64,000 nt of DNA from a virus: positions 102,844 through 166,843 of the IMG/VR virus record IMGVR_UViG_3300045993_000425, one strand, 5' to 3'. The notes under the pieces were generated by a model. The model searched no databases, was not told the DNA's origin, and was given only the letters and a program-made list of their open reading frames with translations. Below are positions 2,123 through 51,141 of the stretch, in pieces. The translations under genes were made by a program, and so were the position numbers. How positions within the stretch are numbered: the stretch's first letter is position 1; the number at the start of each line of letters is the position of its first letter.

Positions 2123-2992
2123 ATGACCAAGACCAAGCTGACCGATGCCGCCAAGGAGCTCGACCTCACCATCAGCAACTACATCCTCTGCAAGTTCGAG
2201 GAAGAGGGAGCCCCGCTCTACGAGAGCCGCAGCGACACCGAGGTGGGTCAGGCCTACCTGAACCTCGACCTGGAGGACGGGGAGGTTTCGGTGACGACCG
2301 GTCACTACCAGGGTGACGGCATCCCCATGAGGGAGTGGCACGGTGAGATCCAGAGCTGGAAGTTCGGCTCGACCTGCATCTCGGGGGAGCAGCTGGAGAA
2401 GCTGGTCCAGAAGGCCCTCCCGCTGCTCGCCCGCGTCAACGACGGGGGGTACATCGAGTGGGATGGCAGCAACCACGTCGGTCAGCTGAACGAGGATGCC
2501 AGCGATGCAGAGCGGGAACTGGAGGACCTGCTGGAGCAGGTGGAGGGCGACATCGAGGCCTGGCAGGCTGGCGACTGGTTCTGCGAGTACCGCGACTCCC
2601 AGTTCCTCCAGGAGCTCTCCGATGCCGGCAGCGTCGAGGCCCTGATCGAGCAGTTGGAGTCGGAAGTCGACCACGACACCGTCATCGAGGGGCTCTCCTC
2701 CTACATCGAGGAGCGGGTGGAGGAGTTCCTGAAGGCCATCGAGGAGTGGATCGAGGACGACCGCCTGGTCGAGGTCCGCTACCGGCTGACCGGGCAGGAC
2801 CCTGAGATGGACGAGGAGAGCGGAATCTGGGAGGGGGAGTCGAGCGAGCAGGCCCTCTCCAAGCACATCGGGGGCATCATCGACTGGCCCACCGACGAGC
2901 GGCCAGAACTCAAGGCGAAGGTCGTCGGGCTGACCATCGATGTAGACAAGGACGGGGACCTCCTGGCGCACTTCACCGTCGAGACGATCTAG
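2123..2992 (+). CDS. acidic hypothetical protein, 289 aa
   Basis: Very acidic throughout, with runs such as LEDLLEQVEGDIEAWQAGDW and IEERVEEFLKAIEEWIEDD. The middle (residues 125-215) is probably helical. The start has a good ribosome site (GGGGAGAACACAATG) and lies 27 bases after a conserved early-type promoter. Highly acidic early phage proteins are often DNA mimics or bind host factors; that is only a possibility here, because no family match is evident. The last strand-like segment (VVGLTIDVDKDGDLLAHFTV) ends the protein, and the next gene starts at once with a GTG. Confidence 0.75.
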   Translation: MTKTKLTDAAKELDLTISNYILCKFEEEGAPLYESRSDTEVGQAYLNLDLEDGEVSVTTGHYQGDGIPMREWHGEIQSWKFGSTCISGEQLEKLVQKALPLLARVNDGGYIEWDGSNHVGQLNEDASDAERELEDLLEQVEGDIEAWQAGDWFCEYRDSQFLQELSDAGSVEALIEQLESEVDHDTVIEGLSSYIEERVEEFLKAIEEWIEDDRLVEVRYRLTGQDPEMDEESGIWEGESSEQALSKHIGGIIDWPTDERPELKAKVVGLTIDVDKDGDLLAHFTVETI

Positions 2993-3238
2993 GTGGCTGC
3001 TTACTTCATCGTACCTGCCCCTGGTAGCTATGGGGGCAGGACGAGGGTGATCTCCAGCCATCACACCCTCAAGGCTGCCGAGAGGGCCTTGGGGTCGCAG
3101 AAGGGGCATGCAGTGCAGTACTGCGTCAGGAGGGGCTGGCTGGTGAAAGGCGATCCCTTCTACCAGGCAGATCTCGCCCGCTTCCCGGTAGTCTACCCCT
3201 ATTCTCCATCGAATGTTGACACGCCCGTCCCGTTTTGA
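2993..3238 (+). CDS. small hypothetical protein, 81 aa
   Basis: Begins with a GTG directly abutting the previous TAG, with no clear ribosome site of its own, so it would depend on translational coupling. The protein (AAYFIVPAPGSYGGRTRVIS ...) is basic, with GHAVQYCVRRGWLVKG and an aromatic/proline-rich end. The last codons overlap the -35 box of the next promoter, which is unusual but common in this compact region. The family is unknown, and the coupling-only start makes this less certain than its neighbours. Confidence 0.5.
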   Translation: MAAYFIVPAPGSYGGRTRVISSHHTLKAAERALGSQKGHAVQYCVRRGWLVKGDPFYQADLARFPVVYPYSPSNVDTPVPF

Positions 3239-3244
3239 TAGTAT
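3216..3244 (+). promoter_or_regulatory. early-type sigma70 promoter
   Basis: TTGACA at 3216-3221, a 17-base spacer, and an extended -10 TGATAGTAT ending at 3244. A 43-base gap containing AAAGGAGAA separates it from the ATG of the next gene. Confidence 0.9.
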
Positions 3245-3287
3245 CCCTTCATCAGTCAGCCAGCCGGTACAACCAAAGGAGAACACA

Positions 3288-3908
3288 ATGGCCAAGTTCA
3301 CGAAGGCGTCCGCGAAGAAGTTCATCAAGAACGCCAAGATCACGGTCTACGTCAGCAAGCGTAGCGAGTACAACTGCTCGCACGCATTCATCGTCTTCCA
3401 GGAAGGTGAGGACAAGGGCTGGGGTCTGGCTCGGCAGTTCCGCATCGAGTTCCAGGCCAATAACCTGACCCACGCAGAGGATACGTTCTCAGATGTATCG
3501 CCCTACAAGCTGTTCGACTACGGGAACGTCCCGTTCGGCGGCTTCTACGGTGGGCACCTCGACGTGGGGCACGATCTCTCCTTCGACTCCGACTGGTCTG
3601 AGAAGCTGGTCGTCCCGCAGTTGGTCTGCAGCCTCCTTCAGGAGCAGATCCGCAACTGCAACCTGCACCTCGTCACCGAGTGCCAGCTGGGCGGGATCTG
3701 CGAGGCCATCGAGAAGCTGGGTGGCACCTACACCCTCGTTCGCCGGAACCACAACGACCGGGAGATCCTCGACATCCACTCCGATGAGATCAAGTTCGGA
3801 GTCGGGGCAGAGAAGGTCGCTCAGATCCGGGCCAACCTCGCCGCCAGGGACGCAGAGGTGAGGGCGAAGAGGGCGGCAGAGCTGGGGCTGTCCGAGGAGG
3901 TGGCGTAA
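3288..3908 (+). CDS. hypothetical protein, 206 aa
   Basis: The start MAKFTKASAKKFIKNAK is chosen because AAAGGAGAACACAATG precedes it; the frame is open further upstream but across the promoter. The N-terminal third is beta-rich with conserved-looking aromatics (HAFIVFQEGEDKGWGLARQF). The centre is glycine-rich (NVPFGGFYGGHLDVGHDLSF), and the C-terminus is an alanine/arginine helix. I do not recognise the family. The stop overlaps the next start (TAATG), so the following zinc-ribbon protein is co-translated. It is the first gene of a unit read from the promoter at 3216. Confidence 0.75.
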   Translation: MAKFTKASAKKFIKNAKITVYVSKRSEYNCSHAFIVFQEGEDKGWGLARQFRIEFQANNLTHAEDTFSDVSPYKLFDYGNVPFGGFYGGHLDVGHDLSFDSDWSEKLVVPQLVCSLLQEQIRNCNLHLVTECQLGGICEAIEKLGGTYTLVRRNHNDREILDIHSDEIKFGVGAEKVAQIRANLAARDAEVRAKRAAELGLSEEVA

Positions 3909-4994: not shown

Positions 4995-5028
4995 GCCTGC
5001 TATCAAACACGTCTCTAAGAGGTGGGCT

Positions 5029-5298
5029 ATGACTGACAATAGCGATGAATCTCACAAGCGTTATGAGTTCATAGAACTGCACGCTGAGATCTATCGCCTG
5101 CGCGCAAATTGTGAGAGTCTAGAAGCCATCGTAACCGACCTGCTAGTTGGAGCCAGAGATCTCAAGTCTAGAAACGAGCTGCTGAAAACAGCACTACATG
5201 AGATTGTGGCCATAACCAGCGATGCCGACACAAACCATAGAGTTTTCACAGCCATGACAATTGCCAGAGCTGCTATTGAACAGGAGAATGGGCTATGA
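5029..5298 (+). CDS. small coiled-coil hypothetical protein, 89 aa
   Basis: The start MTDNSDESHKRYEFIELHAE is chosen at 5029, where the ATGA overlaps the end of a 13-codon reading frame (4991-5032) that may be a coupling peptide; GAGGTGGG supplies the ribosome site. The protein is almost all helix, with a leucine/isoleucine heptad pattern (IYRLRANCESLEAIVTDLLV), so an oligomeric coiled coil is likely. AT content is a little higher than in its neighbours. The stop overlaps the next ATG. Function unknown. Confidence 0.6.
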   Translation: MTDNSDESHKRYEFIELHAEIYRLRANCESLEAIVTDLLVGARDLKSRNELLKTALHEIVAITSDADTNHRVFTAMTIARAAIEQENGL

Positions 5299-5423
5299 GC
5301 GACAAGGCTGAGATCACATGCCCATTCTGCCGGTCGAGCGACATAGCAGAACTCTGGATCCTCGACCGGCTCCTTCACCTTCGCTGCCTGGCTTGCTGGG
5401 GTCTTTTCTGCAAGGCTAGCTAG
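5295..5423 (+). CDS. tiny zinc-ribbon protein, 42 aa
   Basis: ATG at 5295 in an ATGA overlap with the previous stop. The peptide MSDKAEITCPFCRSSDIAEL continues to HLRCLACWGLFCKAS and a TAG. The pairs CPFC and CLAC, about 26 residues apart, are a classic treble-clef or ribbon zinc site, which argues that this short frame is real. It is the last gene of the tightly coupled chain from 4188; a promoter-like sequence follows twelve bases after its stop. Confidence 0.55.
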   Translation: MSDKAEITCPFCRSSDIAELWILDRLLHLRCLACWGLFCKAS

Positions 5424-5434
5424 CAGCAATCTTG

Positions 5435-5463
5435 TTGACAGAAAACCCATCGATATGTTATTC
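5435..5463 (+). promoter_or_regulatory. probable sigma70 promoter
   Basis: A perfect TTGACA at 5435-5440, then a 17-base spacer to TTATTC (or 18 bases to TATTCA). The -10 box departs from the TAGTAT family seen elsewhere, so confidence is lower. The next gene starts at 5502. Confidence 0.5.
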
Positions 5464-5501
5464 ATCTATCATGCTGCAACGACGCGGCTAGGGAGATACC
5501 A

Positions 5502-5741
5502 ATGGCGAACGAATTGACGGCAGCAGAGCAGGCATACGAGGCGGCACTCATCGGGTGCAAGCGTGCGGCCTATGCTATGCATCGCGCCGCCGACGAGGCC
5601 ACCCAAGAGCAGTACGCGGCACTCAAGGTGCGCCATGTCATGTCACGGGCCACTCTGGCCGCCGCCTCCGCGTCGATGGGATCGTCGGTGAACCGCGAGG
5701 AGATCGAGTCCCGCGTGGCGACGATGAGGATCTCCCGGTAA
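5502..5741 (+). CDS. small helical hypothetical protein, 79 aa
   Basis: ATG preceded by AGGGAGATACC. The protein (MANELTAAEQAYEAALIGCK ...) is alanine-rich and predicted almost wholly helical, without cysteine pairs or charged clusters that point to a function. It is probably read from the promoter at 5435. The gene converges on the first giant minus-strand gene: the two stop codons are two bases apart, with no terminator hairpin between them, so transcripts from the two strands may overlap here. Confidence 0.65.
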   Translation: MANELTAAEQAYEAALIGCKRAAYAMHRAADEATQEQYAALKVRHVMSRATLAAASASMGSSVNREEIESRVATMRISR

Positions 5742-5743
5742 GG

Positions 5744-8700
5744 CTAGCAGCCAGACCACAGTTTGTTCATGCCCTCTGACAGGTTGCCGTGGATGTCTCG
5801 CAGCTGCCGCAGCCTAGTCATAGGGCATTCAGTACCAACCCCATAAAGTCTAAGCGTTTTCTCGATGACATTCTCATTCAGGTCGAGTAGCCACTCCCTG
5901 AGGTCGATATCGTCCTGACCAGCCAGCTTAGGCATGTAGACAAGCCGGTCCTCTGGGGCCATCTTCATGAAGTCTAGAGGAGCCCATGCTCGCAGGATGT
6001 AAGGCACGAAGCTGCTAGGGTCAGTTCCAGGCGAGTAGTCCGTACCGGCGAAAGCTGACCCATGATCGATGAGGGCGATAGCACCGGCTGGCTCGACCAG
6101 AATGTTCTGGCCATGAGCATCAGTCTCCCCAATGACCCAGAGGTAGCAGGCTAGCCGGTGTAGGAGGCCTGACTTCAGGTAGGGGATGAGCACCTCAGAG
6201 GCTAGCTGCTCTGCCTGCCTGTTCTGCTCGTCCAAGGGCTTGAATTGCGCCCCTAGCAGCCTCATGGCGGCGGTTTCGCGCCCATTGATGAGGAGCAGGT
6301 CGCAGTGGGGGATCGACTGCCCTAGCCCCATCTCCTTCGCAATATGGTAGGCTGCCGCTTCCCTGGCCGACTGGCTGGCGGTTTCCTGCCTGACTCCAGC
6401 AGCCGGTGAAAGTTTCCCACTGCCTGGCTTGAGGAGCCAGATGCCACCAGACTTAGGGTCACGAGCAGCTAGAGCCCCCTTGGAGTGCTTGCCGTTGAGG
6501 TTGAGAGGCCAGACGAGGCCTTCCTTCGCCGCTCTCCCTACCTCGAGTGCTGTGTCACGCGCCTCGAGGACAGCCGGTGTGACAGTCTTGACCCAGTGCT
6601 TCTCCTCTTCAGCCTTCCCAAGGTCCCTTCCGCCAAGCTCTAGGACAGCCTCCAGGGCTCGGAGGTTCTGTTCGTTGTCGGCTAGCTGGACAGCGAAGAG
6701 GACAGCCTTCTTCTTGTCTCCAAGCACCCTGTAGGCAATCTGGTACTGGTCATGGTCGAACGGCCTACCGGCGGCCAGGAAGATAGCTGCACTGACCAAG
6801 CGGTCTAGGTCTGGGTCGTGCCCAAGCTGCCTGGAGGCCTGGATGATCTCCCAGGACTCAAGCTTACCGGCTTCTGGGTCGAGCCCGAGTAGCTGCTCTG
6901 ACTTCTTGGTCTTGTTGGGACTAGCAGGAGCCATCTGAAGGCTGTGACGGTCCGGCTTGCCGGGAGTGCCTTGCTGCACCTTTAGGTCTGGCTGTGTCTC
7001 TAGTGAGTCCCACAGAGCGTAAGACTCTGGTGAGTTTGTGGTGTCTGACCATACCGTCCCGAACCTAGAAGCTAGATGGCGATACAGAGCAGTAGCGACC
7101 CCTTGTCGCTGGAACTTGGGATGGACGACTGTATTGAAAATGGTCATTCCGGTTCTATTCGAGATACCTCTTAGGGTTGCGATGGTCGGTCGCTCTTCGA
7201 TGTGAGTTGGCACGTCTGTTGCCGTGACATTGAAGCGGGACCACGGGATATCTCCTTCGTCCTCTGAGTCTCGATAGTGATGTACCCACCTGCCTTCCCC
7301 CAAGGGGTGAGTGTCGATGTAGGTATCAGGGGTTCCTGGGCGAGCGTCTTCGGCCTGATACCTAGCCTCATTGTCTGGCCATGAAGGGTACTCTAGTGGC
7401 ATCTTTCTTAGCCGCTCTGACTTCCGAGTACTATCAGGTGCAGGAGGCAGCTGACCCGGCAATCTGCGGCGACGAGGGATGGCTCCAGCAGCTGCAATGC
7501 CACCAGCAATGCCCAAGCCAACAGCACCCAGACCGAATCCGACCCGGCTGCCGGTTTGGGCTCCTTCGTAGGTAGACAGGGCGGCCTCTCGCATCTCGGG
7601 ATCAACCGGCATAGGAGCGTGGTCCCAAGCTCTCTTCTCTGACTCCAGAGTGGCCCCACTCAAGGTATTCGCTATAGTCCCCGGTGCAGGAGGGTTGGGG
7701 TCTAGGATGTGACCTGCCTCATGGGAGACTGCACTCGGGTGAGCAGTGTCATTGGCAAAGATGTGCCCCTCGGATGGAATCGAGAAGGGGCTCATCTTTA
7801 CGGAGGTCTTGAACTTCGCCCAGCGTGCTTCCTCCTTTGGGGTGGTGGGAGCTCGTAGGTCTGCTGGGGTAGTCAGCTTGATCCCAGGAAGCTTGGAGGC
7901 ATTGCGGTCGAATATGGCTCGAGTCGGCTCTACTTCATGTGCGTGCCTGGCATTGACCTGACTCCAGTGCTTGGCCTGAGTCAAACTGCCAACCCCACTA
8001 CCCGCCTTGGCTCCCGCTAGCCCACCGGCAGTCGCCATGCCAAGAGCAAGCGCACCTATGACTCCATTACGGATAGCTCCCTTCTCAAGAGAGTCGTCGC
8101 TCTCGGCAATGGAGTCGATCAACCCGTAAATCCAGGTCAGGTTGACCTCGTCCACCTTGGCCTTGTCGGCTGTCAGGGATGTCTCGACAGTGACCGTCAG
8201 AGGGCAGCCCAGATGCTCGAAGACCCCTTGCGTCGTATTGTCAATATCCTTGCAGATGAGCAAGCCGTCTGGGTCTACTGTCCCTTTATTCCCCTCGACA
8301 TCGTAGAGCTCGACCTTCTGCCCAGCCGCAGCCGGTAGAATCTCGGCAGCCTTCTTAGCCACCTCTCGGAGCTGGTCATCGAAGACATAGGCATAGGTAG
8401 ATGGAGGTAGGTCTTTCTTGTCTAGGTCAGAGTCCTGGTGGAGGTCTACCATCGCATCCGGCGTAGGGATGGAGATGATGTCCTCATAGAAGGCTTTAGC
8501 CTCGTCTGAGGCATCAGGAGCTACTCGGACATCGTCATACCGCCGGTCAGCTACCTCGAGCACCCATTTCCCTTTGACCCGGTACTCGATCAAGTGGTTG
8601 GAAGGCGTCCCATCCTTGATGTTTCTCTTGCCTCGCCCCCAGCCGGTAGGATTGTAGAGGGGGTAGATATTCAGACCCACACCCTTCTCCTTGGCGTATT

Positions 8701-43871: not shown

Positions 43872-44093
43872 ATGAACGCAACGATCAACATGGTGGTGGT
43901 GACCAAGATGACCTTGGCGGCGGGTACGAAGTACTCCGTCGAGGACACCGTCAACGACTGCCTCTCTGAGAAGATGACCCTTGCGGACGACGCGGATGTT
44001 GAAGCGGTCTGCAACACCGACTTCTTCCACCTCTACACGCTGGCAGGCAAGACCATCTTCGTCGCTGTCGAGGACGAGGTGGTTAGCCAGTAA
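43872..44093 (+). CDS. hypothetical protein, 73 aa
   Basis: The start MNATINMVVVTKMTLAAGTK is chosen for the GAGGAGTATAAGGAACCC before it; an in-frame ATG at 43848 is possible. The small acidic protein contains TVNDCLSEKMTLADDADVEA and ends TIFVAVEDEVVSQ. It is alpha/beta in character and not recognised. It converges on the MuF C-terminal gene, overlapping its stop region by 11 bases, and is the last plus-strand gene before the long minus-strand operon. Confidence 0.65.
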   Translation: MNATINMVVVTKMTLAAGTKYSVEDTVNDCLSEKMTLADDADVEAVCNTDFFHLYTLAGKTIFVAVEDEVVSQ

Positions 44094-45084
44094 CTACCGG
44101 AACATGGTCGAATCCGACCTGTCTGGCAGCCTCTAGGATGTGGTGCCCATCAACCACCTCATGGAGCACCTGCCCATCCCCCAAGTCGATCTTTCGAGTC
44201 CTGATGGGTCTTACCTTGCCTGGTGTCTCGACCAAGGCCTTCGCATCCCTGGCTACCTTCCACTGATCTGCTGGAAGGACAGCTACCCCAGACACTTGGT
44301 CAATCGGGACATGGATGAAGCCATCCTGAGACGGCTTCCAGGTCTTCATCGGCTTAGGCGCGTTTGGGTCTTCTAGATGACCAGCCTCAATGTATCTAGC
44401 CATCATCTGGGGACCTACAGCCTTATTGGCAGCGATCTTGTTTCTGCTGACCGCAAAAGCATACCTTGGCTTCCTGATAAACTCAAAGCCAGCCCCTCCA
44501 GCATACCTCTCGACCATGTCGTCGTCCATCACACCATCGCAATGACTCTGCTGGATCGGAACAGCGAATCCCCACCCCCTGTGAATCAATTTCTTGGGAT
44601 GATCTCCGGTCCCCGTGTTCTTCAGCTCCCAACCCCAAGGCTTAAGGTACTCAGCGAGATCCTCTGCTCGCATCCCCTTCTGGAGGGACTCGCTCTTGCC
44701 CATGTGGCGAAGGCGTGGCTCCTCTCCTCGAGGGACTCTCTTGAAGTTTCTCTGGAATGCTACTTCGTCGTGCTTCTCGCCAATCCAAGTGACTAGGCCC
44801 TCGGTAGTAAAGCCGAATCCTGGGATCAAGGTAGTGAGGGCGCAGCGGCAATGAGGGTGAAGGAGGCTCCAGCTAGGCCTATCAGTCCCCTTCTTGTGGT
44901 AGCCAGTCTCTACCTCGCTGGAGAGCCAGACTCGAGGTGTCACCCCATCTGGTAACATATGGATCGTCCTGCATTCGTCGCAGTTGTGATTGATTATTCC
45001 ATTTTCAGAGCGGTACACACCGCCCTCGACAGTTAGTTCAACAACCGTCGCCACCCTCTTCGACTTCTTCGTTAGGCGACCCAC
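44083..45084 (-). CDS. MuF-like head protein, C-terminal part, with C-intein half and ParB-like tail
   Basis: Starts at a GTG with GGAAGGGGG eight bases before it. Residues 1-34 are a C-terminal intein half (VEGGVYRSENGIINHN). After it, CDECRTIHML, HPHCRCAL and nearby residues form the zinc-binding end of Mu gpF/SPP1 gp7-type head proteins. The remaining 230 residues contain a basic region with GKSESLQK and, at the end, a ParB/Srx-like domain (VDGHHILEAARQVGFDHVPV). The chain needs trans-splicing with the product of 45072-46352 to give a whole MuF protein, since KDDRL-CDECR joins the two halves in the usual motif. It overlaps the upstream gene by 13 bases in another frame. Confidence 0.88.
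   Translation of the reverse strand: MGRLTKKSKRVATVVELTVEGGVYRSENGIINHNCDECRTIHMLPDGVTPRVWLSSEVETGYHKKGTDRPSWSLLHPHCRCALTTLIPGFGFTTEGLVTWIGEKHDEVAFQRNFKRVPRGEEPRLRHMGKSESLQKGMRAEDLAEYLKPWGWELKNTGTGDHPKKLIHRGWGFAVPIQQSHCDGVMDDDMVERYAGGAGFEFIRKPRYAFAVSRNKIAANKAVGPQMMARYIEAGHLEDPNAPKPMKTWKPSQDGFIHVPIDQVSGVAVLPADQWKVARDAKALVETPGKVRPIRTRKIDLGDGQVLHEVVDGHHILEAARQVGFDHVPVVTG
44983..45084 (-). other. split intein, C half (34 codons)
   Basis: From the GTG to the final HN before Cys+1. VELTVEGGVYRSENGIINHN holds blocks F and G. Its length is typical of a C-intein, and it has its own ribosome site. Confidence 0.88.
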
Positions 45085-45824
45085 TTCTGAAACCCCCTTC
45101 CTTCTTCGATGAAGGCTCTGACTGTTGTCACAATGTCACTATCCTCAAACTGGTCCTTGCGGCACACTAGCCTGATTACCCGAAAGCCAGCCTTCCTGAG
45201 TCGTTGATCTCTGGCATAGTCGATCTTTGCCGTAACCGAACCTCCGCTCTTCTTAACAAGCCGGTCTCTCATATCGTGTCCAGAGCCGTCGTATTCAACA
45301 ACCACACCGTAGTCAGGAGCGTATTGTGCAACCACATATCTAGCGTAGAGGTCCCAGTCATGTACCTCCATTCCGTATCGCTCAAGGACTGCCGCCCGAC
45401 CTTCAGTTCTAATCAGAGTGACGATATCGTTAATATTACTACGCCAATACGACCAACTATCTGCGTGTCCACGCATAAACGATTTAGCCCTGAAAGAATG
45501 AGACAGTCGCTGTCTTTCTCCCTTACCAACCACCTCATCGGCAAATACCACATCATGAGACTCGTTGAGTAACCGAGCCTCGATGAAACAGTACGTCGGC
45601 CCAGCCTTGATCAGCACCGGATGATCTGGCGTGCAGCAAATCCTGCGTCCATTGTCGAACTCAAGGTCCAGCACTTCAGACTCTTTCTTTTCTGTATGCA
45701 AGACCTTGCGTCCTCGACCGACCCCAGGAGAACTAGGATTATCTAGAAGGTCTCCTTTGACCAACTCACCGACCGGTTTAGCCCCCTTCCTGAAAAGACA
45801 TACCTTTTCCGATTGTTCCAAGCA
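45072..45824 (-). other. split intein, N half plus homing endonuclease
   Basis: From Cys1 (45824) to the TAA: about 100 codons of splicing domain (blocks A and B, with TPDHP), then a linker and the EDxHD nuclease of about 135 codons. In known fractured-gene split inteins a similar nuclease lies as a separate frame between the halves; here it is fused to the N half. Confidence 0.85.
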
Positions 45825-46352
45825 GAGCCGGTCGTCCTTGACCGGGATGAAGAACACTACCGGATCATCGACACCTAGTCCACTATTGATCTGGATGATC
45901 CCATCCCTGAGCCCCATCGTCTTGGCGTTCTCGTTGCTCGTGACGACGACTCTCTCTACGTTGCTCCTGATGGAGTCCCACAGCTCGTGCATTTCACTTT
46001 CACAAGTATTCTGGAACTCATTTGAGTCAATACGCCCACGATGTAGGTCTTGGAGGAGGGATTGGATGCTGTGCCTGGTCTTCGCCTTTGCCTCGCCTCG
46101 GTGCTTCTCGATGTATTGCCTGGCGATCTCAGCCACCCCACTGAGGAGGTCGGTATCCACCCTACCCCCTTCCGCCTCAGTCGCGCTAGCAAAGATTCCA
46201 GGGAGGCTGTAATCCTTGTGTGTCGTGATGAACAGGTTCCGACCCGTCAGCCCATGCCCCAGGAGGCGGGTGATCAGCGAGTCAAAGAGCAAGTCCACCT
46301 TCTGGTCAATGGTGCGACCAGCTGCGGCTGTCAGCTTAGGAAGCCTCGGCAC
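45072..46352 (-). CDS. MuF-like head protein, N-terminal part, fused to N-intein half and EDxHD nuclease
   Basis: A GTG start with GGAGCC upstream, directly after the portal stop. Residues 1-176 are the N-terminal helical part of a MuF/gp7-type head protein, ending VKDDRL. At residue 177 an intein N-half begins (CLEQSEKVCLFRKGAKPVGE), with block B CCTPDHPVLI near 240. From about residue 285 the chain becomes a small nuclease-like domain: VVVEYDGSGHD matches the E-D-x-H-D motif of Vsr-like homing endonucleases, and DQRLRKAGFRVIRLVCRKDQ is the usual following helix-strand. The frame ends at KWVA, with no C-intein in the same chain; that lies in the next gene. N-extein length fits what the other half lacks. 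Confidence 0.88.
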   Translation of the reverse strand: MPRLPKLTAAAGRTIDQKVDLLFDSLITRLLGHGLTGRNLFITTHKDYSLPGIFASATEAEGGRVDTDLLSGVAEIARQYIEKHRGEAKAKTRHSIQSLLQDLHRGRIDSNEFQNTCESEMHELWDSIRSNVERVVVTSNENAKTMGLRDGIIQINSGLGVDDPVVFFIPVKDDRLCLEQSEKVCLFRKGAKPVGELVKGDLLDNPSSPGVGRGRKVLHTEKKESEVLDLEFDNGRRICCTPDHPVLIKAGPTYCFIEARLLNESHDVVFADEVVGKGERQRLSHSFRAKSFMRGHADSWSYWRSNINDIVTLIRTEGRAAVLERYGMEVHDWDLYARYVVAQYAPDYGVVVEYDGSGHDMRDRLVKKSGGSVTAKIDYARDQRLRKAGFRVIRLVCRKDQFEDSDIVTTVRAFIEEGRGFQKWVA

Positions 46353-46353
46353 A

Positions 46354-49300
46354 CTAGGCTCCAGCCTTCGGGATCTGCCTGTCAGCTACATCGCTGACGA
46401 TCTCAGAGACATCCTTGATCATCTGCTTGGCTTCTGCTCGCCAGGCGTCCATGATCGCTCTGTTGGTGGCAGCGATCTGCTCCTTCAGCTTCTTCTTCGC
46501 AGCCGGTAACTGGTGCTCGCCCTTCTGGAGCCCCTGGCCGACAGCCTGAATCGCCTGGTCGATGCCAGAAGCTAGTTCACTGCCCTGAGATGGACCACCC
46601 TGCTGGGAGCCTCCATCCTGGGCAGGAGGTGCCCCACCCTGCTGTCCTGGGTCGCCACCCTGCTCTGCCCCACCACCCTGGCCTGGAGGCCCGCCTTGGG
46701 GCTGCTGGGCCTGTTGCTGGGCTTGCTGCTGTTGAGCCTGCATCTGAGCTTGTAGCTGCTGCCATTGCATCCACATGGGGTTCTGGTAGAAGGCCTTAGC
46801 TGGATCCTTGGAGGCATCCTTGACCCCCATCAGACGCTCCTGAATCTCCCCAAATGTCAGGTACTGGGTGATGTTCTGCCAAACCGTTGGGTTAAGAGGG
46901 AAGGTTCCGGTCAGTTCTGGCCCAACCGGGTCTTTCTCCACCTTCTGGAGGATTTCATCGTAGGTCAGGTGTAGAGGAGCATCCTGCTGGAGGCGAACGG
47001 ACTCCTTCTCCTCTGTATCGATATCTAGACCGACTAGGTGGATGCGGCAGATCTTGGAGAGCTCACGGTCGATGAGGGGTAGGATGTCGGCACTGAGCCA
47101 ATCCTCGAGCTGTGCCAGTAGGGGGCGGATGCCGACATCTCTGGCTGCGGTCAGCTTATATTCCTCATTGGAATTGTGAACTACCGCACCATCTAGGATA
47201 AAGGAGTGGTCCTCAGAATACATCTCGATATCGACCATAGGCACTGTCACACCCAGGTCTTGCAAAGCCGTCACCTTCTCAATCCGACACTCTTCAAACC
47301 AATCAGGAGGCGATACCTCACACAGCCCAAGAACACGACGCACAAACTGCGACGAACACTTCGTTCTTCCCTTGATTGCGGAACCAACGCTGTCCCGCAA
47401 CCCCTTCTCCAGCCCACCAAACAGCGAGGAATCAGCACACATCTTAAGAAGCCGCAACGCAACGCAACGAGGAAGGTCCCCGATGTTCCAGTTCTGCTTC
47501 CTGTTCTGCTGCTTGCGAGGTTGAACGAACCCGATCTGCTTCCAGAACTCCGCTCTGTCCTTAATCGAAAGTTTGTAGCTGAAGCGAACCTCACCAAATG
47601 ACTCTCGCCAGAGTCCTTTCAGTGCGAGAGTTCTAATTCCAAGCCCAAGCAACAACTGTCTCGTCTGATCTCGCAGAGCATCATTCTGACATGTCAGGAT
47701 TACTGAACCATTGGATGTGCGATGACCATCGGCAGAGAATAGCCCCCTTAGGTAGGCTTGCCGATATTCAGCAGGAAGAGCATGAACAAAGGAAGGGATC
47801 ACCTTTCCAGATGTAGAATCACCGAACCCTAGAGACATCAACCACCGAACAAAGTCAGTATCGTAGACCACATTCTGGATATTGTGGTCTGACACGCTCG
47901 CAAAACCGTACTTGATCTTTACTGCCTCCACCTTCTCGGAAGATAGCTCACTTCTCTGATTCTTGTTATTGAGTCCCCAGGCTGTCAGTACCTCATGATG
48001 GTGCCTCCATACATCAACCTCATTGTGGTGCTGGTATAGCAACTTGAACTGAGCCCCCACTCTGCTCTTTGGAGGGACAATGCAACCATCACCAGCAGCC
48101 CAACCGAGGATTTCCATCATGTCCACGGTTAGCTTGCGCCCCTTGAACGAAGGAATCTCACTTTCGCTACCATCAACCATCTGTCCATTGACGAGAACCC
48201 AGTCACCAATGACCAAGTCCTCTTGTCGCTTCCATGCAACATCACCAGTATCGTCAACTACACGAAACCGATGATCTGGAGATGTCTGGATGATGACACC
48301 ACAAGCGAGCTCAGTCTCTACCAGCCTCTTGTCGCCAGACCGGAACATCCTTCCCGGCACCCACTTAGAACCACTCCAGAACTCTCCTTCCCTAGCGTCT
48401 AGCCCATCAAGAAAAGAAAACGCCGAAACAAGCCCAAGATTTTTGACCAATACATGACCAGTAAAGGGGAAGCATTCAGAAAGAGACTGGCTATTGGAAC
48501 CTCGAGTATTGTGTACAACCACGCCTTCAGCCATAAAGACATGGCTATTATCGTAGACTTCGATGTCCACCATCTCGACTACATCGTCACTTCTATCGCA
48601 AGACAAAACCGACTCAAACGAATACTCCGATACCCAAACTGGCAGGGGTTGTCCATGCTGTTCGGCGTATCGCTCAACGATAGAGCGGCACCGATAGGGA
48701 GTCTTGGGGTCGATCAGAATGTGGCGGATGTCATCACGATCCGCTCCTGACACATCTTTTCTGGCCCTGATCTCGTTCGCAAGCCGAATCGCTACAGAGG
48801 CCGGAATCTTGTCCCACTTACCAAGGCTATCGTGCGGTTTCTTCTGTTCCTTGTGAGGCTGTAGGAATCCGATGACTTCATCGTATTTCCTCTTGTCCTT
48901 GATGAATAGCTTGGACTCGCCAGCGACTAGAGTCCTCTTGGGCTTGCCTGGAACGCCACTCCACTCCCTCTTGTGCGTACCTTCGCAGGCGCGAGTCCTG
49001 ATCCCGAGGCTCAGGAGAAGCATTTTGACATCGCTTCTGAGAACGTCATCAAAAACAGTCACCGAAGGGGTTCCTGACGGCTCCCTAGTCCCATCAGCTG
49101 AGAACAGCCCACGAAGGAATGCCGCCCGGAGATTTCTCGGAAGAGAGTGCAAAAACGAAGGGATCCTCTTGCCGTCAGCCGAGGGACGGAACCCAAGCTC
49201 GATCAACCAGTCTACGAACTTCGTATTATGGAGTGTCGCACTCAGGCGCACAGGAGCGATGGTTTTTACGTCGCAAGCGTCCTTGTAGTACTGAACATCA

Positions 49301-51141
49301 TCATCGCTGAAGTGCCTGTCTCGAACTGTTGGTGTCAGTCCCCAGGAGGTCATGGCAGCTACATGACGCTCTCGAATCCAGGGTTCTTTGACGTGATGGT
49401 AATAGAAGTGAAGCTCCTTGCTGTGCTTTACCTTACCGTTCTTACGAACCAGCAAGGAACCATCTCCAACCAGCCAACCAAGCACCTCCAACATCCCTTC
49501 ATCCAACGTCTTGCCATGATAAGAAGGAACCTTACCGGCTCCAGGAACTTCATTCCTGTTGACGAGAACAAAGTCACCCTCGTTCAGATCTTCCTGACGC
49601 TTCCATACAAGACTGCCGTCATCAGAAACGATTCGGAACAAGTGGTCTGGAGATGTCAGTAGTTTAGAACCATTCGACAGCTTGGTAGTGCAGACCCTGC
49701 GAGGACCGCTGACGAAGGCTCGAGCGTCTACAAGTGCCTCACCTGTCCATACCTTGAAGCCAGAGGCCTCCTTCTTGTCGCCTAGAATCTCACCAATTGT
49801 CCTACATCCTTCATTGGTCCATACGCGAGTGTCGCGATGTACGCAAAGGTGCTGATAGCCCGGCACTTCTTCAGGAGAAATCTGGAAAGCAGCCATGATC
49901 GTCCTGGCATTGCTGTCTGCCAGGAACTGGAACTCCATATCCCTGCCACCCGAGTCAATCGGCTGCCAAGTCAGTTCATCCTCTGGTCCGATACCGAACA
50001 CTGGCATCCGCCAGCTGTTACTGGCTCCATTGATACTAGCGTTGAATTGCTGCTTGACGGCTTGCACCACCTCGACATCGACATCGTTGGACTTGATGAC
50101 CAGCATACCTCGGCTGGCTCGACCGTTCTGGAAGTATACCCGATTGTGAGTCCCGATATTGATATGCGTGGTGACCGCATTGATGGCACAATCCAGAGGG
50201 GTAAGAGGATACCCCTGAAGCTCGATGTCAGTCACAGGATAGAAGTTATGGACCAACATCTCGTCATGTGCGAAGGCCTGCATGGGGCGGCCCTCGATGA
50301 CCTGCACCCAGGAGTACTTGTCTGCCTCGAATAGTTCAGGCTTTAGTTTCTCATTCTTGAGGCGAGACAGGAGAGCGACAGCCTCCTCCCGAACCCGCTG
50401 GCTGGCCTCTCTGTTATGAGAAGCGAAGTAGATGGTGCCCGCATCGGTGGGACGGAAGGAGTGGAACTTTCGCTCATCTGGCCTAGCTGGGTCCACTACA
50501 TGAATGACCTCTGTCGCAGCTCTACCCACCACGATGCCATTGCGAGTCGTCATGTACAAAAACTCACTGAAGCTGCACCGGTCCTGGGTGTCCCATCCCT
50601 CGAGGTGACCACAAGTCAGGAGCAGCTTCTCGGCACGGTCGATCCTCTCCTGTAGGATGTCCTTCTTTTTGTCATCCAATTGGTCGAAGATGGCAGGGTC
50701 TGGCTCGATGACGAAGCCCTTGCTGTGCCGGTCACGCTGCTTCCGGCCGAACTGACCAACGTGATTGCTTCTGGTGTGAACGATTGCCGCAACCAGATCG
50801 TCCTGAATCGCGATTCGTTTCAGGAGGCTGTCTGGAACAAGCTGTACCTTGGCACGATAAATGCTTGCGTATTCGGTAATGCGGCTTGGGTCGCGCTCAA
50901 AGGCCAACCGCTCGATGCTGTCATCGGTTCCATTCAGGACGTTCAGGATGCTCTTGGACAGTGCTCCCTCATGCCTCCAGCCACCAGGCAGGGCTGGTAC
51001 ATCCTGCTTCATGACAGGCTGGGTGACATATCTGATACCCATGCCTCGGCGCACCTGTACATCGTCCGTCTTCTGGAGAGGGCGGTCGATAGCGATCTGC
51101 TGAATCAAGTCTGCGAGCAATGGCTTAGGCGGCTTAGGCAC
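46354..51141 (-). CDS. portal protein with two inteins
   Basis: A 1595-residue precursor; removing inteins of 446 and 434 residues leaves a 715-residue portal protein. Extein features: IVHTRSNHVGQFGRKQRDRH, NIGTHNRVYFQNGRASRGML, and the motif PGYQHL-TRGSNSQSLSE-SNEEYKLTAARD, which is the conserved clip/stem segment of phage portals with both inteins set in it. The extein C-terminus is Gln-, Gly- and Pro-rich (QAQMQAQQQQAQQQAQQPQG) and ends in a helix. The GTG start has AAGGATAG upstream. It follows the terminase gene and precedes the MuF gene, the standard order. The portal is the ring through which DNA is packaged; without splicing it would be non-functional. Confidence 0.9.
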   Translation of the reverse strand: MPKPPKPLLADLIQQIAIDRPLQKTDDVQVRRGMGIRYVTQPVMKQDVPALPGGWRHEGALSKSILNVLNGTDDSIERLAFERDPSRITEYASIYRAKVQLVPDSLLKRIAIQDDLVAAIVHTRSNHVGQFGRKQRDRHSKGFVIEPDPAIFDQLDDKKKDILQERIDRAEKLLLTCGHLEGWDTQDRCSFSEFLYMTTRNGIVVGRAATEVIHVVDPARPDERKFHSFRPTDAGTIYFASHNREASQRVREEAVALLSRLKNEKLKPELFEADKYSWVQVIEGRPMQAFAHDEMLVHNFYPVTDIELQGYPLTPLDCAINAVTTHINIGTHNRVYFQNGRASRGMLVIKSNDVDVEVVQAVKQQFNASINGASNSWRMPVFGIGPEDELTWQPIDSGGRDMEFQFLADSNARTIMAAFQISPEEVPGYQHLCVHRDTRVWTNEGCRTIGEILGDKKEASGFKVWTGEALVDARAFVSGPRRVCTTKLSNGSKLLTSPDHLFRIVSDDGSLVWKRQEDLNEGDFVLVNRNEVPGAGKVPSYHGKTLDEGMLEVLGWLVGDGSLLVRKNGKVKHSKELHFYYHHVKEPWIRERHVAAMTSWGLTPTVRDRHFSDDDVQYYKDACDVKTIAPVRLSATLHNTKFVDWLIELGFRPSADGKRIPSFLHSLPRNLRAAFLRGLFSADGTREPSGTPSVTVFDDVLRSDVKMLLLSLGIRTRACEGTHKREWSGVPGKPKRTLVAGESKLFIKDKRKYDEVIGFLQPHKEQKKPHDSLGKWDKIPASVAIRLANEIRARKDVSGADRDDIRHILIDPKTPYRCRSIVERYAEQHGQPLPVWVSEYSFESVLSCDRSDDVVEMVDIEVYDNSHVFMAEGVVVHNTRGSNSQSLSECFPFTGHVLVKNLGLVSAFSFLDGLDAREGEFWSGSKWVPGRMFRSGDKRLVETELACGVIIQTSPDHRFRVVDDTGDVAWKRQEDLVIGDWVLVNGQMVDGSESEIPSFKGRKLTVDMMEILGWAAGDGCIVPPKSRVGAQFKLLYQHHNEVDVWRHHHEVLTAWGLNNKNQRSELSSEKVEAVKIKYGFASVSDHNIQNVVYDTDFVRWLMSLGFGDSTSGKVIPSFVHALPAEYRQAYLRGLFSADGHRTSNGSVILTCQNDALRDQTRQLLLGLGIRTLALKGLWRESFGEVRFSYKLSIKDRAEFWKQIGFVQPRKQQNRKQNWNIGDLPRCVALRLLKMCADSSLFGGLEKGLRDSVGSAIKGRTKCSSQFVRRVLGLCEVSPPDWFEECRIEKVTALQDLGVTVPMVDIEMYSEDHSFILDGAVVHNSNEEYKLTAARDVGIRPLLAQLEDWLSADILPLIDRELSKICRIHLVGLDIDTEEKESVRLQQDAPLHLTYDEILQKVEKDPVGPELTGTFPLNPTVWQNITQYLTFGEIQERLMGVKDASKDPAKAFYQNPMWMQWQQLQAQMQAQQQQAQQQAQQPQGGPPGQGGGAEQGGDPGQQGGAPPAQDGGSQQGGPSQGSELASGIDQAIQAVGQGLQKGEHQLPAAKKKLKEQIAATNRAIMDAWRAEAKQMIKDVSEIVSDVADRQIPKAGA
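47173..48474 (-). other. portal intein 2 (434 aa, LAGLIDADG type)
   Basis: Starts CFPFTGHVLVKNLGLVSAFS, with SPDHRFRVV as block B, MEILGWAAGDGC and LRGLFSADGH as nuclease helices, and VDIEMYSEDHSFI/GAVVHN at the end. Ser is the +1 residue. It shares many phrases with intein 1 (WKRQEDL, LRGLFSADG), so the two are related. Confidence 0.95.
48508..49845 (-). other. portal intein 1 (446 aa, LAGLIDADG type)
   Basis: Starts CVHRDTRVWTNEGCRTIGEI (block A), with SPDHLFRIV as block B, LEVLGWLVGDGSL and LRGLFSADGT as the two LAGLIDADG helices, and VDIEVYDNSHVF/GVVVHN as blocks F and G. Thr is the +1 residue. All splicing residues look intact. Confidence 0.95.

What the first reader, a model, noticed from the sequence alone, without database searches (positions are those of the whole stretch)
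44083..46352. MuF head gene fractured by a split intein with a fused EDxHD homing endonuclease
The two frames overlap by 13 bases. The upstream one ends in an N-intein plus nuclease (VVVEYDGSGHD), the downstream one starts with a 34-codon C-intein (to HN) and has its own ribosome site (GGAAGGGGG, then GTG). Joining N-extein VKDDRL to CDECRTIH restores the MuF motif. Known fractured genes carry a separate Vsr-like nuclease frame between the intein halves; fusion of the nuclease to the N half looks like an intermediate stage in the evolution from a whole intein to a split one.
Basis: partly seen in the sequence, partly recalled or inferred. Interest (0 to 1): 0.85.

Follow-up and report, generated by a model that had tools for sequence, protein, structure and literature searches.

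The report
Split phage intein with fused, decaying nuclease
A phage head-protein gene is cut into two overlapping reading frames by a self-splicing protein element (a split intein) whose DNA-cutting part is fused to the first half, and a second, distantly related phage has the same break with a complete nuclease, so the arrangement is real and old rather than a sequencing error.

Summary
On the minus strand, frame 46352..45072 is an N-extein (176 aa), N-intein, helical stretch and Vsr-like nuclease piece. Frame 45084..44083 is a 34-aa C-intein and the C-extein. They overlap by 13 nt. Joined, the exteins give 475 aa and align gaplessly across the splice site to uninterrupted MuF proteins (one also 475 aa).

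A diverged phage contig (L006) has the same split at the same codon with the same 13-nt start/stop overlap, which rules out a sequencing error and argues against programmed frameshifting.

Against L006 it lacks about 155 aa, including the first catalytic Glu and Asp, so it is probably dead; L006 keeps all four residues. The fused-nuclease split occurs in two MuF lineages that are not sisters (AU p 6e-6), each with intein-less close relatives, which fits an old mobile element. 'Intermediate stage' is plausible but its direction is not shown.

Verdict: a naturally split, predicted trans-splicing intein in a head-morphogenesis gene; a new variant of the 'fractured gene' arrangement (nuclease fused to the N-half instead of free-standing). 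Splicing itself is untested.

The parts
45825..46352 (-). N-extein: first 176 aa of the MuF-type head morphogenesis protein, directly downstream of the portal gene
   Evidence: Aligns with intein-less MuF proteins L015 51%, L016 46%, Mx1 33%
45504..45824 (-). N-intein (Hint N part), C177 (CLEQSEK) to block N4; block B TPDHPVL
   Evidence: TIGR01445 over cut-off; C1, T and H of block B conserved in L006; Hint fold in the L006 model
45315..45503 (-). helical region between Hint and nuclease, shared with L006 (..H.WD.Y.R......Y.P)
   Evidence: Alignment with L006; predicted helical in L006 model
45075..45314 (-). C-terminal remnant of a Vsr/EDxHD-like nuclease (VVVEYDGSGHD..ARDQRLRKAGFRVIRL); N-terminal part with the first E and D absent
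   Evidence: PF04480 positions 42-98 only; about 155 aa shorter than L006; phrog_12131 homing endonuclease, positions 236-294 of 313
45072..45084 (-). 13-nt overlap: start codon of the C-half (GTG) inside the end of the N-half, TAA of the N-half
   Evidence: Same length and layout in L006 (ATGGCGCGTCTAG)
45093..45101 (-). GGAAGGGGG, Shine-Dalgarno-like, 8 nt before the GTG
   Evidence: Sequence; duplex -11.5 kcal/mol with the anti-SD
44983..45084 (-). C-intein, 34 aa, basic N-terminus (MGRLTKKSKR), block F TVVELTVEGG, block G NGIINHN
   Evidence: 53% identical to the L006 C-intein; codon-position identities 65/71/24%
44083..44982 (-). C-extein: C+1 (invariant Cys of MuF CxEC) to the stop, 299 aa, with metal-site-like CDEC..H..HPHCRC and a C-terminal tail
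   Evidence: Alignment A8: C1, C4 and H8 invariant in 12 MuF proteins

Best explanation
A naturally split intein sits at the codon for an invariant Cys of a MuF-type head morphogenesis gene. The phage makes two polypeptides: N-extein + N-intein + nuclease remnant, and C-intein + C-extein. The second is translated from an overlapping start with its own ribosome site, probably coupled to termination of the first. The two intein parts associate, fold as one Hint domain and trans-splice, giving a 475-aa MuF protein and releasing the intein halves with the nuclease piece. The element entered as an EDxHD-type homing intein; the ancestral nuclease (intact in L006) cut intein-less MuF alleles. In the window phage it has lost its N-terminal catalytic part and probably no longer homes, while the split remains because the phage needs the joined protein. 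Shown: anatomy, homology, conservation of split and overlap, empty alleles, loss of nuclease residues. Inferred: trans-splicing, past homing, nuclease inactivity.
For: Two frames with 13-nt overlap and SD-like site. Intein N-domain over cut-off; splice residues C1, T/H of block B, H-N and Cys+1 all present in window and L006. Joined exteins align gaplessly with uninterrupted MuF proteins, 475 vs 475 aa. Independent diverged copy L006 with identical break and overlap; there the C-half frame is closed by a TGA 6 nt before its ATG. Codon-position constraint in every segment, read in its own frame. The L006 N-intein+nuclease model matches the I-Bth0305I catalytic domain and Hint domains, prob 1.00; the nuclease profile hits 3hrl E 2e-6 and 3r3p E 0.02. 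MuF identity from BFVD fold matches, PF04233 E 0.001 for Mx1, and position after the portal gene. Charge pattern N1 +3, N2 -4, C-intein +3, as described for split inteins that associate electrostatically (PMC11923092).
Against: No splicing has been measured. The C-intein is not recognised by TIGR01443 on its own; its assignment rests on position, motif and L006. Only two split copies are known here. The L006 model is low confidence (pLDDT 59) and its fold matches have weak E-values. MuF Pfam matches are below the curated cut-off.
Confidence: 0.85

Rival explanations
1. A sequencing or assembly indel splits a normal whole intein.
For: A G5 tract lies just before the overlap in the window, and the C-half frame is open back to 45138.
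Against: L006, a different contig at 35-53% identity, has the break at the same place with the same 13-nt overlap, an ATG start and no homopolymer between the TGA and TAG that bound the overlap. Two independent errors at the same point would be needed.
Confidence: 0.02
2. Programmed -1 frameshifting makes one continuous polypeptide that splices in cis.
For: AGGGGGTTT upstream of the overlap in the window would allow a -1 shift.
Against: In L006 the shift would have to occur inside CACATGGCGCGTCTAG, after a TGA in the C-half frame; nothing slippery is there. The RTG start and overlap are conserved; the G run is not.
Confidence: 0.04
3. The halves do not splice; they work as two subunits, the intein parts being remnants.
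For: Two separately translated frames; nuclease eroded.
Against: All splice-site residues kept in both copies; the C-intein is constrained at codon positions 1 and 2 (65/71% vs 24% at position 3); without splicing the MuF CxEC motif would stay attached to an intein fragment and cut off from its N-terminal domain.
Confidence: 0.06
4. Same mechanism, opposite history: an ordinary fractured gene with a free-standing nuclease whose frame was later fused to the N-intein, rather than a whole intein that broke.
For: Free-standing nuclease genes between split halves are known (MIJ3 PolB, PMC6892783; Dassa 2009 from memory).
Against: Whole inteins carrying the same nuclease type occur in this contig (contig 76868-78922) and at another MuF site in L043, so a broken whole intein is at least as economical.
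Confidence: 0.35

Closest known systems
Fractured genes (Dassa et al. 2009, doi 10.1093/nar/gkp095; paper not held, recalled from memory)
   Same: Phage gene broken by a split intein at the homing-nuclease position; Vsr-like nuclease at the break
   Different: Nuclease is fused in frame to the N-intein, no free-standing gene; halves overlap by 13 nt; host gene is a MuF head gene, not a DNA synthesis or repair enzyme
Naturally split inteins split at the nuclease site (gp41-1, NrdJ-1, Npu DnaE)
   Same: About 107-aa N-intein and 34-aa C-intein; the L006 N-intein's best PDB sequence matches include gp41-1 (E 0.1) and NrdJ-1 (E 0.16), both weak
   Different: Those N-halves end at the Hint domain (own knowledge); here 143 aa of helical region and nuclease remnant follow
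EDxHD homing endonuclease I-Bth0305I (3R3P)
   Same: L006 nuclease has the fold and E/D/H/D by alignment
   Different: Intein-borne rather than intron-borne; the window copy lacks the N-terminal E and D
Whole MuF inteins at the HPHC Cys (L043, L047, Gordonia phage Lennon gp16)
   Same: MuF host gene; L043 has the same nuclease type
   Different: Different insertion site; single continuous frame
Artificially split PI-PfuI
   Same: Reported to work in trans while keeping its nuclease domain (PMC7090010 citing Iwai 2001)
   Different: Engineered, not natural; its nuclease is of another family (own knowledge)

Membership tests
Naturally split intein | N- and C-intein on two separate frames, each joined to an extein | tested here: met
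   repeated in L006
Naturally split intein | Splice residues: Cys1, block B TxxH, penultimate His, terminal Asn, Cys+1 | tested here: met
   C177, T241/H244, H33, N34, C35 in window; all conserved in L006
Naturally split intein | Trans-splicing activity | not testable with these tools
   needs expression of both halves
Fractured gene (Dassa 2009) | Conserved gene broken in two by a split intein | tested here: met
   uninterrupted MuF homologues L015, L016, L077, Mx1
Fractured gene (Dassa 2009) | Free-standing endonuclease gene between the halves | tested here: not met
   nuclease is in frame with the N-intein; halves overlap by 13 nt
EDxHD/Vsr homing endonuclease | Vsr-like nuclease fold | tested here: met
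   L006 model vs 3r3p prob 1.00 and 1vsr 0.99; window copy has only the C-terminal half
EDxHD/Vsr homing endonuclease | Catalytic E, D, H, D all present in the window copy | tested here: not met
   E and first D lie in the segment missing from the window; present in L006 as KPEQ and KVDLF
EDxHD/Vsr homing endonuclease | Cleaves the intein-less allele | not testable with these tools
   needs nuclease assay
MuF head morphogenesis protein | MuF fold, next to the portal gene | tested here: met
   BFVD matches MuF-like/head morphogenesis proteins; portal at 46354-51141
MuF head morphogenesis protein | Reaches Pfam's curated cut-off for PF04233 | tested here: not met
   20.1 vs 29.6 bits for Mx1; the own-contig search finds none

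The most novel reading that the evidence does not exclude
A split intein that is itself the mobile unit: N-intein and EDxHD nuclease in one chain and C-intein in an overlapping frame move together between phage lineages as one DNA element, so homing carries the broken state to new hosts and fixes gene fracture, after which the nuclease decays (window) and leaves an ordinary nuclease-less split intein.
Probability: 0.45. Interest if true: 0.78.

Novelty: new variant of a known kind. Interest (0 to 1): 0.62.

Why it matters
How whole inteins become split ones is an open question. Here the break lies between nuclease and C-intein, at the same codon in two diverged phages, once with an intact and once with an eroded nuclease. 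That makes the order of events (break first, nuclease loss later) directly testable. It also adds a head-morphogenesis gene to the known hosts of split inteins and two candidate split inteins for trans-splicing tests (C-halves of 34-35 aa).

Tried and rejected
Sequencing error and programmed frameshift: rejected through L006. Further split copies: scans of viral contigs with the N-half alone, the C-half, the L006 N-half, the N-half alignment, the nuclease alignment, MuF N-extein and C-extein alignments and a C-intein DNA pattern and one scan of bacterial genomes gave only L006; the pattern hit L156 is a tail gene without an intein. Geobacillus virus E3 and LR756501 nuclease matches are weak and were not pursued. 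L006 nuclease alone against PDB by phmmer: no match; the profile was needed. PDB fold search with the MuF model gave nothing useful; BFVD did. Co-conversion: L006 vs L077 identity drops to 35/60 in the 60 nt before the site and is 48/60 after it, only suggestive. Dassa 2009 and Taylor 2011 are not held, so the comparison with fractured genes rests partly on memory and on papers that cite them; the searches I ran of the held library showed no MuF split intein and no natural split intein with a nuclease fused to the N-half, which is not proof of absence.

Full report
What is there. The window is the end of a 166,843-base phage contig. On the minus strand, right after the portal gene, frame 46352..45072 (426 aa) overlaps frame 45084..44083 (333 aa) by 13 nt. 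The first carries an N-extein of 176 aa, a Cys177-led intein N-domain (TIGR01445, over cut-off), a helical stretch and a Vsr/DUF559-like nuclease piece. The second starts at a GTG with GGAAGGGGG 8 nt upstream, has a 34-aa C-intein ending HN, then CDEC of the host protein. Own-frame constraint is seen in every segment against L006: codon-position identities for the C-intein are 65/71/24% and for the nuclease piece 58/65/38%.

What the host gene is. Joining the exteins gives 475 aa, which align gaplessly across the splice point with uninterrupted proteins in L015, L016 (475 aa), Mx1 and L007. These are MuF-type head morphogenesis proteins: the Mx1 protein matches PF04233 at E 0.001 (below cut-off), a model of the family (pLDDT 80) matches MuF-like and head morphogenesis proteins in BFVD, and the gene follows the portal gene, or lies one gene after it, in the loci read in detail (window, L006, L015, L016, L077, Mx1; L007). 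The intein sits immediately before an invariant Cys.

Why it is not an artefact. L006 (IMGVR_UViG_2140918008_000058) encodes the same gene with the same break. Its N-half ends ..TWRV-stop and its C-half starts MARL.. with ATGGCGCGTCTAG, again a 13-nt overlap. The two copies share 35% (N-extein), 41% (N-intein), 47% (nuclease C-part), 53% (C-intein) and 51% (C-extein) amino acid identity. In L006 the C-half frame is closed by a TGA 6 nt before the ATG, so neither a homopolymer error nor frameshifting at a slippery run accounts for it.

The nuclease. L006 has a full Vsr-like domain: SKPEQ, KVDLF, EYDGSGH and FSRD supply E, D, H and D by alignment with L043 and the 3r3p profile match. Which residues are catalytic is inferred from these alignments, because the I-Bth0305I paper is not held. 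A low-confidence model of its N-intein plus nuclease finds I-Bth0305I (3r3p) and hedgehog/intein Hint domains as top matches, prob 1.00. The window copy lacks about 155 aa present in L006, with the E and the first D; only VVVEYDGSGHD and the C-terminal part remain. It is probably catalytically dead.

Distribution. Among the 80 best MuF loci from a C-extein scan, only L006 itself has an intein at this codon; the N-extein loci agree. L077, 86% identical to L006 in the C-extein, is an empty allele. On a MuF tree the window groups with intein-less L015, L016, L119 and L135, and L006 with L077; holding window and L006 together is rejected (AU p 5.7e-6). So there were at least two changes of state: transfer between lineages, or an old presence with many losses. 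The data cannot choose, but repeated loss would have to be very frequent.

Evolutionary setting. Whole inteins with a Vsr-type nuclease exist in this same contig (a structural gene, contig 76868-78922) and at a second MuF site in L043; a nuclease-less canonical split intein interrupts TerL in the L007 phage. The window and L006 fit between these: whole intein, break between nuclease and C-intein, nuclease decay, bare split intein. These inteins sit at different sites, so the series is an inference, and fusion of a formerly free nuclease is not excluded.

Mechanism proposed. Two polypeptides are made from overlapping frames; the intein halves associate (N2 lobe net -4, C-intein +3) and trans-splice. 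[quoted passage not shown] Splicing is predicted from residues, not shown.

Against what is known. MIJ3 PolB (PMC6892783) shows the usual layout, a separate nuclease gene between the halves. Dassa 2009 could not be read here. By the free-standing-nuclease criterion this locus is not a classical fractured gene; it works like one. Verdict: new variant of a known kind.

Noticed in passing
window 46354-51141 (-): The portal gene carries two whole LAGLIDADG inteins close together; L077 has one at the second of these sites, L006, L015 and L016 have none.
   Followed up: partly
G000 contig 5000-7126, 86430-88049, 76868-78922 (outside the window; L012, L011): The same phage contig has a mini-intein in a ribonucleotide reductase, an HNH-like intein in ThyX and a whole intein with a Vsr-type nuclease in a structural gene: with the portal and MuF, at least six inteins.
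   Followed up: partly
L007 1303-2112 and about 2264-3751: TerL of a related phage is broken by a canonical split intein with no nuclease between the halves.
   Followed up: partly
L043 6649-7734; L047; L154 (Gordonia phage Lennon gp16): A second MuF intein site, at the Cys of HPHCRC, holds whole inteins with EDxHD, LAGLIDADG or no recognised nuclease.
   Followed up: partly
L015 and L016 MuF C-terminal tail: The tail of the intein-less relatives contains a HicA-like domain (PF07927, E 5e-8 and 1e-6); the equivalent window stretch does not match.
   Followed up: partly
L006 last 60 nt of the N-extein versus L077: DNA identity drops to 35/60 just before the insertion site while it is 48/60 just after; the L006 sequence there (FIPVKD) resembles the window clade. 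Possible co-conversion trace.
   Followed up: partly
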